Origin: an uncultured Bacilli bacterium
GTDB taxonomy: Bacteria > Bacillota_I > Bacilli_A > RFN20 > CAG-288
NCBI GenBank assembly: GCA_944332485.1
Contig: CALVKB010000009.1
Span: 1 to 34,798 of the forward strand
Direction of reading: 5' to 3'
DNA: 34,798 nt
The position numbers and the translations under genes are program-made. Every line of letters begins with the position of its first letter. Positions within the stretch are counted from its first letter, which is position 1. Shown piece after piece: positions 25,469-34,798 of this stretch. The notes beneath the pieces are model-generated. The model made no database searches and was not told the DNA's origin. It saw only the letters and a list, made by a program, of their open reading frames with translations.

Positions 25469-25863
25469 GGGTCAGTGACGGTTTTGACATGTTTAGACAG
25501 GTTTTGAACGCAGCCGAGTGATTACGTAATAATCAGCTTAAATAATCACAGCAGAAGATGATTATATCCCATATGCTAACGCTACACCAGCAATGGCATA
25601 TGCTTACTAAAATCGTTTTGTAACTTTTTTGAGCTCCCACATGAGGACTCACCGCAAAACGTAAGTTAGCCGATTCTATTAAAGTTAACTTCTCTCCTAA
25701 TAGATAACATCCATCTCGTTACCCGGATGGTTTGTGATAAGTAAGGTAACAAAAATTAATATTCTGGGTTTACACGGAATATTTCTTATCTAGTAAACTA
25801 AGCTGTAGTTGGTCATTATGAGTCTCTATGTGGACAGGAGTTCGAGTCTCCTCTGATCCACCA
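25469..25863 (+). ncRNA. ssrA: Transfer-messenger RNA (tmRNA)
   Basis: tmRNA rescues stalled ribosomes by trans-translation. The tRNA-like ends pair: 5' GGGTCAG with 3' CTGATCC, followed by discriminator A and an encoded CCA (25861-25863). The T arm GGACAGGAGTTCGAGTCTCC is clear. The resume codon is GCA at 25551, preceded by AATAATCACA, and the tag frame reads AEDDYIPYANATPAMAYAY before TAA at 25608-25610. The 395-nt length is normal. The tag is unusual: it is 19 residues long and ends in AYAY, not the LAA end recognised by ClpXP in most Bacteria. Its 3' end is a known type of integration site, and accessory DNA begins right after it. Confidence 0.93.
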
Positions 25864-26425: not shown

Positions 26426-27229
26426 ATGAAGAATGATTTTGAAAAGTATTTATATCAATTGAACTTATCGAGAAATACAATTAATTCTTATTTAACTACA
26501 ATTAAATTATATGAAGAAATGTTTGACTTGATTGATAAAAAGGATCTATTAGCATTTAAAGGATATCTGGTTGAAAATTTTAAGCCTAAAACAGTAAATT
26601 TAAGAATTCAGGCCATTAATAAATGTTTAAGTTATTTGAATAAGAAGAGTTTATGTTTGAAGGCAGTTAAAATTCAACAGAAGACTTTCTTAGAAAATGT
26701 AATTAGTAATGCTGATTATGATTTTTTAAAAGAGTCACTAAAGAAGGATAATGAAAATGAGTGGTATTTCTTAGTTAGATTCTTAGCTGCAACAGGCGCA
26801 AGAGTTAGTGAAATAGTTCAATTTAAAGTGGAACATGTAAAAATAAGATATTTTGATTTATATTCTAAAGGTGGAAAAATTAGAAGAATTTATATACCTA
26901 AAAAATTAATTAATGAAGCACTGGTTTGGATTAAAAACATTAACAAAGAGTCTGGATATTTATTTACCAATAAAAGAGGTGACAGGATAACGACTAGAGG
27001 AATTGCAATGAAACTAAAGGGATTTGCTAATAAATATGGAATTGATCCAAAAGTTGTATATCCACATTCATTTAGGCATAGATTTGCCAAAAACTTTTTA
27101 GAAAAATTTAATGATATATCATTGTTAGCTGATTTGATGGGACATGATAGTATTGAAACAACAAGAATTTATTTAAGAAGAACAACTACAGAGCAAAAGG
27201 CAATAGTAGATAACGTGGTAACGTGGTAG
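26426..27229 (+). CDS. Tyrosine recombinase (XerC/D-like integrase)
   Basis: Tyrosine site-specific recombinase of 267 residues, the compact two-domain form. Residues 1-75 are the SAM-like core-binding domain (LNLSRNTINSYLTTIKLYEE). The catalytic domain shows Arg126 in ATGARVSEI, Lys148 in SKGGKIRR, His214-x-x-Arg217 in HSFRHRF, His240 in LMGHDS and the nucleophile Tyr249 in TRIYLRR, so it looks active. The start follows AAAGGAGGAAAA. It lies between an hsdS fragment and a defence-type operon and is bracketed by inverted repeats, as are recombinases that switch type I specificity genes. It could equally be the island's integrase. Arginine codons are almost all AGA and leucine mostly TTA, unlike the mixed usage left of ssrA. 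Confidence 0.9.
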   Translation: MKNDFEKYLYQLNLSRNTINSYLTTIKLYEEMFDLIDKKDLLAFKGYLVENFKPKTVNLRIQAINKCLSYLNKKSLCLKAVKIQQKTFLENVISNADYDFLKESLKKDNENEWYFLVRFLAATGARVSEIVQFKVEHVKIRYFDLYSKGGKIRRIYIPKKLINEALVWIKNINKESGYLFTNKRGDRITTRGIAMKLKGFANKYGIDPKVVYPHSFRHRFAKNFLEKFNDISLLADLMGHDSIETTRIYLRRTTTEQKAIVDNVVTW

Positions 27230-27882: not shown

Positions 27883-28500
27883 ATGGCAAAAGGAATAATA
27901 TATTTAACTTCAACTGTAGTTGATGGATTAATTAAGATTGGCAAATGTCAATCAGATCAATATGATTCAAGGATGTATCAACTTGAACACAATGGATATT
28001 GTAATGTTGCTGGATTAAAGAGACAGTTTGCAATAGAGGTTGATGATTACGATGCAAAAGAGGTATTATTACATACTATTTTTAAGAAAAGTCAGGTAGG
28101 AGACACTGAACTATTTTCTGTTGATTTAGATTTAGCTAAACAATTATTGGCTGCTTTTGATGGGACAGTTATTTATCCAAAACAAGCAAAAGAAGAAATA
28201 TTTGATGAAGCAACAGATGCTTTGGAAGAAAAGCAAATAATACTTCCTCAAAATAGGCATCATTTTAAAGATATTGAATTTACATCGAGTCTTACTGGCA
28301 AGAAATATAAAGGCACAACAAGTAAAGACGGTGTCTTAGCAATCATAGATTTAAGTGATGGGAAAGAAATACCAAACAATGCTAAGCCTAATAAAAAAGC
28401 TATTATTGGAAAAGCAATAGAAGACTTAGGTGGAAATGTAAAAAAAGATGACACATTATATCAAAGATATAGAACTTTAAGTAAGTTAGTATCTAAATAA
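27883..28500 (+). CDS. T5orf172/GIY-YIG nuclease-domain protein
   Basis: A 205-residue protein whose first ~95 residues form a T5orf172-type GIY-YIG domain. IIYLTST and LIKIGKC provide the GIY and YIG strands. Arg30 in YDSRMYQLEHNG, His64 in LLHTIF and Glu76 in VGDTELF are at catalytic positions. The C-terminal part (about 115-205) has TSSLTGKKYKGTTSKDGVLAIIDL and looks like a small beta-rich DNA-associated module of the RAMA kind, but this is only a resemblance. The ATG follows GGAGGGA. It stands 25 bases before two DUF262 genes, suggesting a nuclease role in a defence operon. Confidence 0.72.
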   Translation: MAKGIIYLTSTVVDGLIKIGKCQSDQYDSRMYQLEHNGYCNVAGLKRQFAIEVDDYDAKEVLLHTIFKKSQVGDTELFSVDLDLAKQLLAAFDGTVIYPKQAKEEIFDEATDALEEKQIILPQNRHHFKDIEFTSSLTGKKYKGTTSKDGVLAIIDLSDGKEIPNNAKPNKKAIIGKAIEDLGGNVKKDDTLYQRYRTLSKLVSK

Positions 28501-31656: not shown

Positions 31657-32175
31657 ATGAGAAAAATAGCAATTTTATTATTTTTACCACTATTATTGTT
31701 GTTTGTAGGATGCTCTTCTAATAGTACTATTACAAACTCTCCATCAACAACAAATCCTGAGACACCGTCTCAAACAGAAGAACCTAGTGCTTCAACAAAT
31801 GATGAGGTGGATGCGAAATATATGTATGCAACAATTAACAATACTGTATTAGAAATTAAATTAGAAAATAACTCTTCAGCTGAAGCTATTTTTGAAAAAC
31901 TAAGAGATGGTGATGTAGTTGTTGCTATGCATGATTATGGAAGCTTTGAAAAAGTTGGATCGTTAGGATTTAGTTTACCTAGAAACGATACAAATATTAC
32001 AACAACACCTGGTGATGTAATTCTATATCAGGGGAATCAAATCACAATTTATTATGATGAGAATACTTGGAACTTTACCAAGCTTGGTCATATAGATATC
32101 ACACAAAGTGAATTAAAATCTATTCTTGGTGATGGTGATGTGGAAGTAGTATTCAGTTTAGAAAATAAGAAGTAA
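31657..32175 (+). CDS. Lipoprotein with cyclophilin-like fold
   Basis: A 172-residue secreted lipoprotein. Signal sequence RKIAILLFLPLLLLFVG is followed by lipobox Cys19, then a Ser/Thr/Pro-rich spacer to about residue 50. The domain after that (TINNTVLEIKLENNSSAEAIFEKL, MHDYGSFEKVGSLGFSLPRND, TTPGDVILYQGNQITIYYD, WNFTKLGHI) matches the bacterial cyclophilin-like family (Cyclophil_like2). These are not proven peptidyl-prolyl isomerases. It begins one base after the DUF1524 nuclease gene, so it is made with it, although it acts outside the membrane; the link to defence may be incidental. Confidence 0.8.
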   Translation: MRKIAILLFLPLLLLFVGCSSNSTITNSPSTTNPETPSQTEEPSASTNDEVDAKYMYATINNTVLEIKLENNSSAEAIFEKLRDGDVVVAMHDYGSFEKVGSLGFSLPRNDTNITTTPGDVILYQGNQITIYYDENTWNFTKLGHIDITQSELKSILGDGDVEVVFSLENKK

Positions 32176-32188
32176 AGTTAAAGTTAAT

Positions 32189-32232
32189 TGAACCATAGTT
32201 CATTGACGAAATATGGATTTTTTTAGTAAAAT
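32189..32232 (+). promoter_or_regulatory. Promoter with dyad operator, drives XRE gene
   Basis: TGAACCATAGTTCA (32189-32202) is a perfect 5-bp inverted repeat around CATA. It directly abuts a -35 TTGACG (32203-32208), with an 18-base spacer to TAAAAT (32227-32232). The same arrangement recurs at 32548. Placement just upstream of -35 suits an activator at least as well as a repressor. Confidence 0.7.
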
Positions 32233-32292
32233 ATAAGCGATAAATGAATTAGTACCAGGAAGTTGAGATATGGGCTCAAAGGAGGTACTAAT

Positions 32293-32529
32293 ATGAATTA
32301 TCAAAAAGCTATATTAGATAAAAGTGCCACTTGTCAAAAGATCAGAGCCCTTATCCAAGAATCAAGCTATACTTATGAAGAACTAGCTGAAATGCTTCAA
32401 TTAGGATCTCCAAGAGTAATCTACGAATGGATTAATGGTAACAAATTACCTGGTCTTGAAAACATGTATAATCTTGCTCTAATATTTAACATGAAAATGG
32501 AAGATTGTCTCGTTATGATCTCGTTATGA
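32293..32529 (+). CDS. XRE-family HTH regulator, small (C-protein-like)
   Basis: A 78-residue helix-turn-helix protein. The HTH covers about residues 16-70 (IRALIQESSYTYEELAEMLQLGS, recognition helix PRVIYEWINGNKLPGLENM, then YNLALIFNMKMEDCLV). The start at ATG 32293 follows AAAGGAGGTACTAAT; an earlier in-frame start at 32263 has none. Size and the dyad at its own promoter recall controller proteins of restriction-modification systems, which autoactivate. The identical operator lies after the gene in front of a second promoter, so it likely controls both its own synthesis and that downstream unit. Confidence 0.8.
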   Translation: MNYQKAILDKSATCQKIRALIQESSYTYEELAEMLQLGSPRVIYEWINGNKLPGLENMYNLALIFNMKMEDCLVMISL

Positions 32530-32596: not shown

Positions 32597-32865
32597 AGAT
32601 GTAGGCCAAAACGATTGTGATTTTTGGCTATTAATGATATAAATATTGTGAGATCCATTACATGTTCCGAAACAATGGAGTAGGAGCTATACCTATATGG
32701 AATGTTGGAGCAAGTCTAATTCATGGGAATGCATTAGAGGAGTAAACCAACTGTTAAGAGCAAAGTTTCAAGAGTGGTATTGTTGGTATCAATTATAATA
32801 ATCAGAATGGAATTGATTGTTATGAGGGTGATATTGGTAATACTACTGATATCATCCTTTTTATT
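32597..32865 (+). ncRNA. Candidate structured RNA (unknown class)
   Basis: A ~260-base unit between an XRE-type promoter and a strong terminator, in a 368-bp stretch without an intact gene of normal size. Hairpins visible: 32605-32611/32622-32628 (GCCAAAA/TTTTGGC with wobble); TCCAT/ATGGA around TGTT-CCGA-AACA (32654-32679); TCTAAT-t-CAT-GGGA-ATG-c-ATTAGA (32715-32738) with a GNRA tetraloop; GTTGG (32704-32708) with CCAAC (32747-32751) enclosing that hairpin; ATCAATT/AATTGAT (32788-32817). Alternatives are a leader with attenuator for the gene at 32898, a 33-codon Trp-rich frame at 32697-32798 behind TAGGAG, or a decayed small gene (a 27-codon frame from 32662 continues in frame beyond two TAA stops). 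No match to a known RNA class is recognised. Confidence 0.5.
32826..32865 (+). terminator. Strong intrinsic terminator of the intergenic unit
   Basis: A continuous 14-bp stem (32826-32839 with 32844-32857, three G-U pairs) with a four-base loop, followed by TTTTTATTTT. It ends 32 bases before the next gene, so it isolates the unit or attenuates that gene. Confidence 0.8.
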
Positions 32866-32897
32866 TTAGATGTTTAGAAAGCTGAGGTTGCTTAATT

Positions 32898-33884
32898 ATG
32901 AAAAAGAACAGCAAAAGTATTACTAGACAATATAATAAGCCTAAAAGTATGGACCCGATGTGCCCTGAATTTTATGGTGTTATCATAAAGGATAAACATG
33001 TAAAAATTGATACTAGAAGATATAAGAAGTTTTTCGCTTTACCAGACAACAAAATAGAAATTAGAAATACTGTTTATTATCAACCTTCAAGAGTTCACAA
33101 ATTAGATTATTATTGTAATTTCTTTAGAACTAGATGTGAAATGTTATTAGAAAAATACAATACTGAATTTAAGATTGCTATTGAAGCGATTAAAACACCA
33201 AAGCAAGTAGAAGATAATCTAAGAGTTCAATTATTAAATACAGGTGAAGATTATGAAACAGCACAAGAAATCGCTCTTTTGAAAGGGATAAAAAGAATCA
33301 ATCCTTATAAATATGCGATTAAATCTTTATATGCTCAGTTCTTTCACCAAATGATGGCAGAAATTGATGCACAAACTTGTAGAGTATTAATTCCACTTGG
33401 ATTTAGAGAAGATGATTTTTCAAAGAAAAGCTTTGATGTTTTTATTCAATCTAAACAAGGTAGCAATGCTATTCCATTTAAACAATTTAAATACTATGAA
33501 ATATATGATAGAGCGTATGCTGTTTGGAACTTTTTAAAACATAATTCAAAGAAAGCATATGATGTTTTATGCAAGCACTATCCTGAGATGATTTATGATC
33601 CTGATAATTCATATAGAAATGTAGATCTAGTATTATCAGTTTTGAAACTTGATGAAAGATATATTCTAAAAGTGTTGAAGGAACTTCCTTTATTCTTTGA
33701 CGAGATATGTAGACTTGGATTTGGTGAAAATATTGATGATGCGAAATGGGACTATGAGGATTACTTCATGAACGAAGTTAAAAGTAAGATAAGTAGTTTA
33801 GAAATAGATCAATTGAAGGAGGAAAGCGTATGTCATATTTATTTATATCGTTTAGCGATAGACTGGAACATGGAAGTGATTTAA
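32898..33884 (+). CDS. Unknown protein, mainly helical
   Basis: Not recognised. A 328-residue soluble protein without signal or membrane segment. The first ~75 residues are basic and beta-like (EFYGVIIKDKHVKIDTRRYKKFF). The rest is predicted helical by texture, including NPYKYAIKSLYAQFFHQMMAEID and YEIYDRAYAVWNFLKHNSKKAYDVLCKHYPEM. The WNFLKHNS stretch recalls HEPN-type helical folds, but the usual R-x4-6-H catalytic spacing is not clear, so this is only a hint. The ATG follows GAGG at ten bases. It overlaps the next gene by 55 bases, an unusually long overlap that implies tight coupling. Confidence 0.72.
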   Translation: MKKNSKSITRQYNKPKSMDPMCPEFYGVIIKDKHVKIDTRRYKKFFALPDNKIEIRNTVYYQPSRVHKLDYYCNFFRTRCEMLLEKYNTEFKIAIEAIKTPKQVEDNLRVQLLNTGEDYETAQEIALLKGIKRINPYKYAIKSLYAQFFHQMMAEIDAQTCRVLIPLGFREDDFSKKSFDVFIQSKQGSNAIPFKQFKYYEIYDRAYAVWNFLKHNSKKAYDVLCKHYPEMIYDPDNSYRNVDLVLSVLKLDERYILKVLKELPLFFDEICRLGFGENIDDAKWDYEDYFMNEVKSKISSLEIDQLKEESVCHIYLYRLAIDWNMEVI

Positions 33885-34726
33885 AAAGCGAATTATACAA
33901 TTTATCTCTTAATGAGCAGTTTAATTTAATACAAAAAAGAATACCTTTAGATAGGCAAACATCATCATTTCAAAATTTTATAGAAGCATGCTTTCCGACT
34001 GGAATGACAAAAAAATATTATATTTCATGTTCTAATTTTTTAAGAAAAAAACGACAAGTATCAAATGGAAGAGCAAGCTATTTAAATAATATAGTTATAA
34101 GGCCAGAATTGACTTTAAGCATGAGACGTTATCTTCCAGATAATCAAAACATTATATTAATAGGAGATATTTTTGAAAGCAATAAAGCTAGCATATTGCA
34201 AGTTAAAGGAATCCAATTAATAGATTCAAATATGTCTTCACCGAGTGATATAGTAGTTAATGCTGAAGCATGTTCATCTTATGGTAAAAGCCAAAGTATG
34301 AGCAGAATGGGAACTATGGTGCCATATAGCGTTTGGACTATCGATCATGTCGATATGGCTAATACAGTTTTTACTCCTAATTTTGTATTCGACCTGATTA
34401 ATACTTGTTATACAGTAAAAAATCCTGCAGAAGTAAGACAAACATATGAAGATTGGAATCAATATATAAACTTTAGAAAATATTATCTAGATGAGCAATC
34501 AAAGAGAAATTTTGCATTAGATTCAGCAGATTATGTTGAAGCATATGCCGTCAATAGAAGAGATTATAGAAAGAATTCATCAATCTATGATGATTATATT
34601 TTGGATGAAAGAGAAGAGTTTACTAAAGGTGAAATGGTTGTTTTATCATCACCAATCGAAGATGCTGAACCATTCCCACTTGTTAGATTAAATATTGATA
34701 GAAATAAAAAAGCATTTAATGAATGA
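33830..34726 (+). CDS. Unknown protein, possibly truncated at its C-terminus
   Basis: Not recognised. 298 residues, soluble, with no Walker or nuclease motif seen. Visible blocks include IPLDRQTSSFQNFIEACFPTGM, the repeat-like middle NQNIILIGDIFESNKASILQVKGIQLIDS, and an acidic late part DDYILDEREEFTKGEMVVLSSPIEDAEPFPLVRLNIDRNK. The start is clear: ATG behind GAAGGAGGAAAGCGT, within the end of the upstream gene. The stop codon coincides with the beginning of an IS3-like terminal sequence. The frame may therefore be the N-terminal part of a longer protein cut by insertion. Confidence 0.68.
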   Translation: MSYLFISFSDRLEHGSDLKSELYNLSLNEQFNLIQKRIPLDRQTSSFQNFIEACFPTGMTKKYYISCSNFLRKKRQVSNGRASYLNNIVIRPELTLSMRRYLPDNQNIILIGDIFESNKASILQVKGIQLIDSNMSSPSDIVVNAEACSSYGKSQSMSRMGTMVPYSVWTIDHVDMANTVFTPNFVFDLINTCYTVKNPAEVRQTYEDWNQYINFRKYYLDEQSKRNFALDSADYVEAYAVNRRDYRKNSSIYDDYILDEREEFTKGEMVVLSSPIEDAEPFPLVRLNIDRNKKAFNE

Positions 34727-34798
34727 TGTGTACCCAATAAGCTGGACAAGTTAATTGGATTATATCATAAGCTCAACATGGATGCCTCCCTAAATTTG
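34727..34798. mobile_element. Probable IS3-family element end
   Basis: TGTGTACCCAATAAGCTGGA and the following CAAG resemble IS3/IS150-group terminal repeats (TGTAC-CCAAAAAGTTGGACA type; on the other strand TTGTCCAGCTTATTGGGTACA). The window ends before any transposase frame, so only the terminus is seen. It directly abuts the stop codon of the preceding unknown gene. Confidence 0.4.

What the first reader, a model, noticed from the sequence alone, without database searches (positions are those of the whole stretch)
32597..32865. XRE-controlled candidate structured RNA of unknown class
Between a defined promoter and a 14-bp-stem terminator lie about 260 bases with several nested hairpins, including one capped by a GGGA GNRA tetraloop and enclosed by a GTTGG/CCAAC pairing. 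No normal-sized gene is present. It stands beside two unknown genes and a dedicated regulator at a defence-island position. Competing readings are a leader-attenuator of the next gene, a 33-codon Trp/Cys-rich peptide, or a decayed small gene. The frame at 32662 looks protein-like but carries two TAA stops, which weakens the RNA claim.
Basis: partly seen in the sequence, partly recalled or inferred. Interest (0 to 1): 0.75.

Follow-up and report, generated by a model that had tools for sequence, protein, structure and literature searches.

The report
New RNA paired with toxin-like gene
The stretch encodes a real, previously uncatalogued structured RNA that sits, in distantly related gut bacteria, directly in front of one unknown protein gene (often followed by a defence-type motor protein), an arrangement that looks like an RNA antidote paired with a toxin used in defence against phages.

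Summary
Eight relatives of this region fold alike: 39 pairs, 95% of cells paired, 20 pairs with changes on both sides (8.1 in shuffles, at most 7 when slid). With the window left out, 37 of 43 predicted pairs still form in it. No Rfam family matches.

The RNA lies upstream of the 32898-33884 gene (ORF1), a ~320-aa family without Pfam, PADLOC or PDB relatives. A shorter RNA with its own covariation and a shared core, CCUA...GAGUGG, sits at the same place in more distant relatives: 24 of 30 loci, 0.14 expected. An XRE gene often accompanies it. What follows ORF1 varies: an SF1 helicase (here split by an insertion sequence), an AAA+ ATPase operon, or a Tmn-like ATPase.

Best reading: an RNA antitoxin/toxin pair that works like type III toxin-antitoxin and AbiF systems, repressed by XRE, with ORF1 expressed by terminator read-through. 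It is not a member of either: no abiF motif, no tandem repeats, no Abi_2 similarity. Toxicity, RNA-protein binding and phage defence are inferred, not shown.

The parts
32190..32201 (.). Palindrome GAACCATAGTTC, putative XRE operator at the XRE promoter (TTGACG-18-TAAAAT, 32203-32232)
   Evidence: Sequence; promoter match
32250..32290 (+). XRE leader hairpin TAGTACC...GGTACTA that would cover the ribosome-binding site of XRE
   Evidence: Sequence; the same GTACC...GGTAC arrangement precedes XRE in L037, L039, L040
32293..32529 (+). XRE-type regulator, 78 aa
   Evidence: Pfam HTH_3 E=5.9e-6; homologues 53-61% identical at the same place in L019 and L020
32549..32560 (.). Palindrome GTACCATAGTAC, putative XRE operator at the RNA promoter
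   Evidence: Present in form GWACYA..RGTWC just after XRE in L036, L037, L039, L040, L041, L042, with a looser copy in L046
32562..32590 (+). Putative sigma-70-type promoter of the RNA/ORF1 unit
   Evidence: TTGTAA-17-TAAAAT, 9 of 12
32597..32866 (+). Whole putative RNA transcript, promoter to terminator, about 265 nt (start site inferred)
32646..32801 (+). Conserved structured RNA core, class A (model R1)
   Evidence: 142.9 bits (model includes this sequence); blastn 78.8% over 151 nt to L019, E=8e-30; leave-one-out
32652..32790 (+). Helix P1, closing stem (GATCC / GGTATC with one bulge in the window)
   Evidence: GATAC/GTATC in relatives; helix 1, 92.5% of cells paired; bulged register in the window assigned by eye
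32664..32687 (+). Helix P2, hairpin GTTCC/GGAGC
   Evidence: 3 of 5 pairs with double changes
32690..32779 (+). Helix P3 with the conserved internal-loop core CCUAUAUG ... GAGUGG
   Evidence: Helices 3 and 4, 96-100% paired, 6 of 10 pairs with double changes; core shared with other subfamilies
32704..32751 (+).
   Evidence: Helix 5, 100% paired
32715..32738 (+). Helix P5 hairpin (TCTAAT...ATTAGA) with GGGA in its loop
   Evidence: 8 of 8 pairs with double changes
32752..32762 (+). Helix P6, TGTT-AAG-AGCA small hairpin
   Evidence: First pair UA/AU/GC across relatives, 100% paired
32824..32866 (+). Intrinsic terminator between the RNA and ORF1
   Evidence: terminator-like hairpins with T-tracts at the same place in L036, L039, L041, L042, L046
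32898..33884 (+). ORF1, 328 aa, putative toxin/effector and putative RNA partner; invariant N-x-x-K-H-N motif at residues 211-216
   Evidence: Alignments A2, A8; AlphaFold2 pLDDT 89; no Pfam, PADLOC or PDB relative
33830..34726 (+). ORF2, first 298 aa of a ~1500-aa UPF1/DNA2-type SF1 helicase (MkoA-like), interrupted by an insertion sequence
34724..34798 (.). End of the insertion sequence that splits ORF2
   Evidence: Same 75 bases near the ends of contigs C11 and C2; rest of ORF2 at G000:C23:62-3712

Best explanation
The stretch encodes a ~265-nt noncoding RNA with a ~140-nt folded core. It is transcribed from an XRE-repressed promoter and mostly ended by the terminator; occasional read-through makes the mRNA of ORF1 (and, where intact, its partner NTPase). 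The RNA is proposed to bind the ORF1 protein and hold it inactive, as the RCd22 RNA holds AbiF. When phage infection or element loss stops RNA supply, or when the neighbouring NTPase senses the phage, ORF1 would be released and stop growth, perhaps by cutting RNA. Shown here by computation: RNA structure and conservation, its position in front of ORF1 in most relatives, conserved order, operator-like palindrome, terminator, swapped NTPase partners. Inferred: RNA-protein binding, neutralisation, toxicity, defence role, trigger.
For: Covariation (class A; class B). RNA-ORF1 pairing: the class A model hits only the three genomes of 279 with a class A ORF1 and intact upstream DNA (a fourth is cut at its contig start); the class B model hits 11 genomes, 10 with ORF1 beside it and one at a contig edge. 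An additional intact RNA copy stands alone ~1.9 kb upstream of the pair in G121/L049, which fits a trans-acting RNA. Core motif upstream of ORF1 in 24 of 30 loci, 0.14 expected. Promoter-RNA-terminator-gene order with no good promoter after the terminator is the order shown experimentally for RCd22-abiF (PMC12373285). Defence context: GmrSD and PDC-S57 genes behind an integrase and tmRNA in the window, downstream partners matching MkoA, IetA and Tmn profiles. Different NTPases behind the same RNA-ORF1 cassette suggest a self-contained effector module.
Against: ORF1 has no detectable relation to any known toxin or RNase; its NxxKHN motif is not the HEPN Rx4-6H, and the best HEPN structural match is not significant (7ae8, E=4.5). 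Some ORF1 relatives (L051/L052/L057, L068, L069, L072) show no recognisable RNA, so the RNA is not needed by all. Class B loci lack a clear terminator. No expression, binding or toxicity data exist. In the window ORF1 lacks the usual NPLGxP tail and ORF2 is broken, so this copy may be impaired.
Confidence: 0.55

Rival explanations
1. The RNA is a positive cofactor: a structural or guide-like part of a ribonucleoprotein effector formed with ORF1 and worked by the neighbouring NTPase (as crRNA is to Cas13 or msDNA to a retron), not an antidote.
For: Tight RNA-ORF1 pairing and elaborate conserved fold; ORF1 without similarity to known toxins; three kinds of NTPase partner; ORF1 and helicase genes 12-15 nt apart or overlapping.
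Against: A terminator between RNA and protein gene and an apparently autoregulating repressor are the usual layout of toxin-antitoxin units; some ORF1 relatives apparently manage without the RNA.
Confidence: 0.25
2. The RNA is a cis-acting leader (riboswitch- or attenuator-like) that sets read-through into ORF1/ORF2 and has no life of its own.
For: Same strand, directly upstream, terminator at its 3' end in class A; in L050 a hairpin covers the ORF1 ribosome-binding site.
Against: A complete RNA copy stands without ORF1 in G121/L049; class B RNAs end without a clear terminator; no alternative terminator/antiterminator pairing was found, though none was searched for systematically; tied to one protein family rather than to a metabolic function.
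Confidence: 0.15
3. The stretch codes for a small protein: the 33-codon Trp/Cys-rich peptide at 32697, or a decayed gene in the frame at 32662.
For: Open 33-codon frame from ATG 32697 in the window.
Against: Equivalent frames in relatives give 7, 16, 16, 16, 16, 7 codons or have no start, and the 32662 frame is broken by early stops and lacks ATG in most; a 2-nt length difference in the P5 loop breaks the frame while the stem is kept.
Confidence: 0.02
4. Chance folding of an AT-rich intergenic region plus an ordinary terminator.
For: Energy z-score is moderate (-2.84) and partly due to the terminator.
Against: Covariation far above both controls in two separate alignments; leave-one-out prediction.
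Confidence: 0.02

Closest known systems
AbiF / RCd22 system (Abi_2 HEPN protein with abiF RNA motif RF03085; PMC12373285)
   Same: ncRNA directly upstream of a ~300-aa protein gene, own promoter, terminator between them, gene expressed by read-through; defence context
   Different: No abiF motif; RNA core larger and differently built (CCUA..GAGUGG loop versus CCCGCC-A-AGC..GCU-CAAAUC-GGCGGG); protein not alignable to Abi_2 (HHalign probability 0.1%), lacks RNxxAH, no AbiF (8vz6) among the listed fold matches; XRE regulator and NTPase partner
Classical type III toxin-antitoxin systems (ToxIN, CptIN, TenpIN)
   Same: RNA gene, terminator, protein gene in one transcription unit
   Different: No tandem repeats in the RNA; RNA is a multi-helix core; ORF1 gives no Pfam or PDB match and is about twice the length of ToxN-type toxins as I recall them
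Mokosh (MkoA/MkoC SF1 helicases, PADLOC)
   Same: ORF2 family is a UPF1/DNA2-type helicase scoring well against MkoA (E about 1e-93 to 1e-100)
   Different: Partner genes are ORF1 and an RNA; helicase absent from many ORF1 loci and broken in the window
Ietas (IetA AAA+) and Tmn
   Same: AAA+ ATPase or YobI/Tmn-like ATPase follows the cassette in other genomes
   Different: Only profile similarity of the ATPase; to my knowledge an RNA-ORF1 pair is not part of those systems as described

Membership tests
abiF RNA (RF03085) | Match to the Rfam covariance model | tested here: not met
   No match in window or relatives, also with permissive settings; control: the model finds phiC2 abiF at 37.6 bits
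AbiF / Abi_2 protein family | Pfam PF07751 or profile similarity | tested here: not met
   HHalign against an Abi_2 alignment probability 0.1%
AbiF / Abi_2 protein family | HEPN catalytic motif RNxxAH (Rx4-6H) | tested here: not met
   Invariant motif is NxxKHN; Abi_2 controls show RNxxAH
HEPN superfamily | HEPN fold | tested here: inconclusive
   Confident, mostly helical models (pLDDT 89-90) but no significant Foldseek match; 7ae8 HEPN toxin only at E=4.5
Type III toxin-antitoxin (ToxIN type) | Antitoxin RNA made of tandem repeats | tested here: not met
   No direct repeats
Type III toxin-antitoxin (ToxIN type) | RNA gene, terminator, protein gene in one unit without promoter before the protein gene | tested here: met
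   for class A; class B lacks a clear terminator
Type III toxin-antitoxin (ToxIN type) | Protein is toxic and is neutralised by binding the RNA | not testable with these tools
   Needs expression and binding experiments
Mokosh type I | MkoA-like SF1 helicase | tested here: met
   on the intact homologue L019; the window's copy is interrupted
Mokosh type I | MkoB partner gene beside the helicase | tested here: not met
   ORF1 and XRE match no PADLOC MkoB model
Any family of Rfam release 15 | Score above a family's gathering cut-off | tested here: not met
   Only tmRNA (and tRNAs in relatives) found

The most novel reading that the evidence does not exclude
A structured RNA and an unrecognised helical protein form a ribonucleoprotein effector cassette that has been joined repeatedly to different sensor NTPases (UPF1-like helicase, AAA+, Tmn-like), a modular RNA-based immune system unrelated in origin to type III toxin-antitoxin, AbiF/Cas13 and retrons.
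Probability: 0.3. Interest if true: 0.88.

Novelty: new variant of a known kind. Interest (0 to 1): 0.72.

Why it matters
It adds an RNA class with strong covariation support and a protein family without annotated relatives, joined as a cassette with exchangeable defence-type NTPases in uncultured Bacilli, Clostridia and Spirochaetes. If the RNA is an antitoxin, RNA-controlled toxins arose at least once more outside the ToxIN and AbiF/Cas13 lineages; if it is a cofactor, it is a new kind of RNA-based immunity. Either way the claim can be tested with one small locus in E. coli, and the covariance models let others find more.

Tried and rejected
Rfam at gathering and permissive thresholds: no match. 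Peptide and decayed-gene readings: rejected by relatives. abiF motif search over 58 genomes: nothing, and the control genomes were empty too, so that search alone is uninformative; the phiC2 control shows that the model works. HHalign of ORF1 to Abi_2: no relation. Foldseek of two ORF1 models against PDB and of one against BFVD: no significant hits, although an AbiF structure, 8vz6, exists. ORF1 in plasmids and phage records: none; in viral contigs one, apparently the same locus as a genome contig. Class B model on the window: no credible match (9.9 bits in a wrong register), so the link between class A and class B rests on the shared core, topology, position and ORF1 homology, not on a model hit. 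First class B alignments (A4, A5) had wrong windows or poor columns and were replaced by A6/A7. A search for repeats of the tmRNA end as an island boundary found none in the window. Literature searches found no description of this RNA-protein pair in the open-access library; most subscription papers were not covered.

Full report
What is in the window. The finding lies at the end of contig C9 of a 1.13-Mb genome, in an AT-rich island behind a tmRNA gene (25469-25863) and a phage-type integrase (26426-27229), with two GmrSD-type genes and a PDC-S57 gene. The local order is XRE gene (32293-32529), palindrome and promoter, the stretch in question, terminator, ORF1 (32898-33884), ORF2 (33830-34726), insertion-sequence end.

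Relatives. ORF1 has relatives in 16 of 279 genomes of the order, the window's own included, and in 38 loci of a species-wide genome collection, from Bacilli, Clostridia and Spirochaetes. It is absent from the phage and plasmid records searched. The closest relatives (46-54% identity; class A) share the order XRE - about 300-370 nt - ORF1. More distant ones (class B, about 27-35%) carry ORF1 with an XRE-like gene behind it in several cases.

The RNA. Eight class A upstream regions align (A3). RNAalifold finds 41 pairs, 21 with both-sided changes. Counting 39 of them with controls: 95.2% of cells paired (shuffled 83.8), 20 pairs with both-sided changes (shuffled 8.1, sd 1.7; slid structures at most 7), covariation score 0.452 (shuffled 0.221; slid at most 0.093). 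Predicting the structure without the window and applying it to the window gives 37 of 43 pairs, 6 through both-sided changes, against 10-23 when slid. L037-L040 are close to each other, so the number of independent changes is smaller than the cell counts. The fold is a closing stem P1, a hairpin P2, and a long arm P3 whose internal loop CCUAUAUG/GAGUGG is nearly fixed and which carries P4 (the GTTGG/CCAAC helix), P5 and P6.

Class B RNAs are shorter (about 75-100 nt) but have P1 enclosing P2 and P3, with CCUAUG/GGAGUGG in P3; 17 distinct sequences give 16 of 18 pairs with both-sided changes (shuffled 8.1) (this alignment was fitted to the model; the unfitted A6 gives 11 of 18). The core pattern with two flanking pairs occurs upstream of ORF1 in 24 of 30 loci against 0.14 expected by shuffling; the pattern was taken from these loci and they are related, so this is support, not an independent test. 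The class B model does not recover the window RNA, so unity of the two classes is an inference.

Not a protein. The frame at 32662 has early stops and mostly no start in relatives, and the 33-codon frame shrinks to 7 or 16 codons or lacks a start.

Pairing with ORF1. The class A model hits three genomes of 279, exactly those with class A ORF1 and complete upstream sequence (the fourth, G248, begins at the contig edge). The class B model hits 11; in ten ORF1 is beside it, in one the contig ends. In G121 (L049) a second intact copy stands without ORF1, about 1.9 kb upstream, which argues for action in trans. Some ORF1 subfamilies (L051/52/57, L068, L069, L072) have no recognisable RNA.

Regulation. 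A palindrome GWACYA..RGTWC lies at the same place between XRE and the RNA in L036, L037, L039, L040, L041 and L042, with a looser copy in L046; in the window it also precedes the XRE promoter. In both window promoters it abuts the -35 box. The simplest reading is a repressor of its own gene and of the RNA/ORF1 unit. Terminator-like hairpins at the end of the RNA occur in the class A loci tested, but not clearly in class B. No good promoter follows the terminator, so ORF1 is probably expressed by read-through.

ORF1. All 34 aligned members keep N211, K214, H215 and N216. No Pfam, NCBIfam, PHROG, PADLOC or PDB family is matched convincingly. Two AlphaFold2 models with mean pLDDT 89-90 have no significant Foldseek match. 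A HEPN-like RNase is a guess from the motif and helical fold only.

Partners. In the closest relatives ORF1 is followed within 12-15 nt by a ~1500-aa SF1 helicase close to MkoA. In the window it is split by an insertion sequence: residues 1-298 here, 297-1509 on contig C23, with the same element end on C11 and C2. In other class A and class B loci an operon with an AAA+ ATPase (IetA-like) follows instead, and in L060 a YobI/Tmn-like ATPase lies nearby. Proximity in defence islands can be coincidence, but the short gaps and recurrence in both classes make functional coupling likely.

Interpretation. The layout matches RCd22-abiF of C. difficile, where the RNA is terminated upstream of the gene, read-through makes the toxin mRNA, and the RNA binds and neutralises the toxin in cis and in trans (PMC12373285). 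On that analogy the present RNA is most likely an antitoxin for ORF1 (0.55). A cofactor role in an RNP effector (0.25) and a purely cis-acting leader (0.15) remain. It is not a member of the AbiF, ToxIN or Mokosh families by the tests above. Novelty is set at 'new variant of a known kind' because the presumed mode of action is known, although both RNA and protein appear to be new families.

Noticed in passing
window 33830-34726 and G000:C23:62-3712: ORF2, a ~1500-aa SF1 helicase, is split by an insertion sequence whose end also lies near the ends of contigs C11 and C2; in L040 the same gene is also in two pieces.
   Followed up: yes
window 33806-33884: ORF1 of the window lacks the NPLGxP tail found in relatives and instead runs on into the start of ORF2, with a 55-nt overlap where relatives have a 12-15-nt gap.
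   Followed up: partly
window 32250-32290: Hairpin in the XRE leader that would cover its ribosome-binding site; the same arrangement precedes XRE in L037, L039 and L040.
   Followed up: partly
L049 2649-2718 (L119): Solitary, well-folded class B RNA without ORF1, ~1.9 kb upstream of a complete RNA-ORF1 pair; perhaps a second antidote copy or the remains of a lost unit.
   Followed up: partly
L036 7453-11733, L041, L043, L046, L047, L065, L073: Conserved operon behind ORF1: small proteins of unknown function, a 533-aa AAA+ ATPase (IetA-like) and, at least in L036, L043 and L047, a 615-aa protein without Pfam match; possibly a defence system of its own.
   Followed up: partly
L060 8274-12131 (same locus as viral contig L074): Tmn/YobI-like ATPase of 1285 aa near ORF1 in an Erysipelotrichales genome; the contig is also listed as viral.
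   Followed up: no
L058 8531-12298: Genes that look, by eye, like Microviridae (capsid, pilot, replication) ~1 kb downstream of ORF1 in a Spirochaetaceae genome; possible prophage next to the cassette.
   Followed up: no
window 27883-28500: Protein strongly matching PADLOC candidate PDC-S57 (E=4e-59), without Pfam match, beside two GmrSD genes in the tmRNA-adjacent island.
   Followed up: no
window 31657-32175; L037 5282-5794: A cyclophilin-like lipoprotein (PF18050) just upstream of XRE in the window; a similar-looking short lipoprotein precedes XRE in L037.
   Followed up: no
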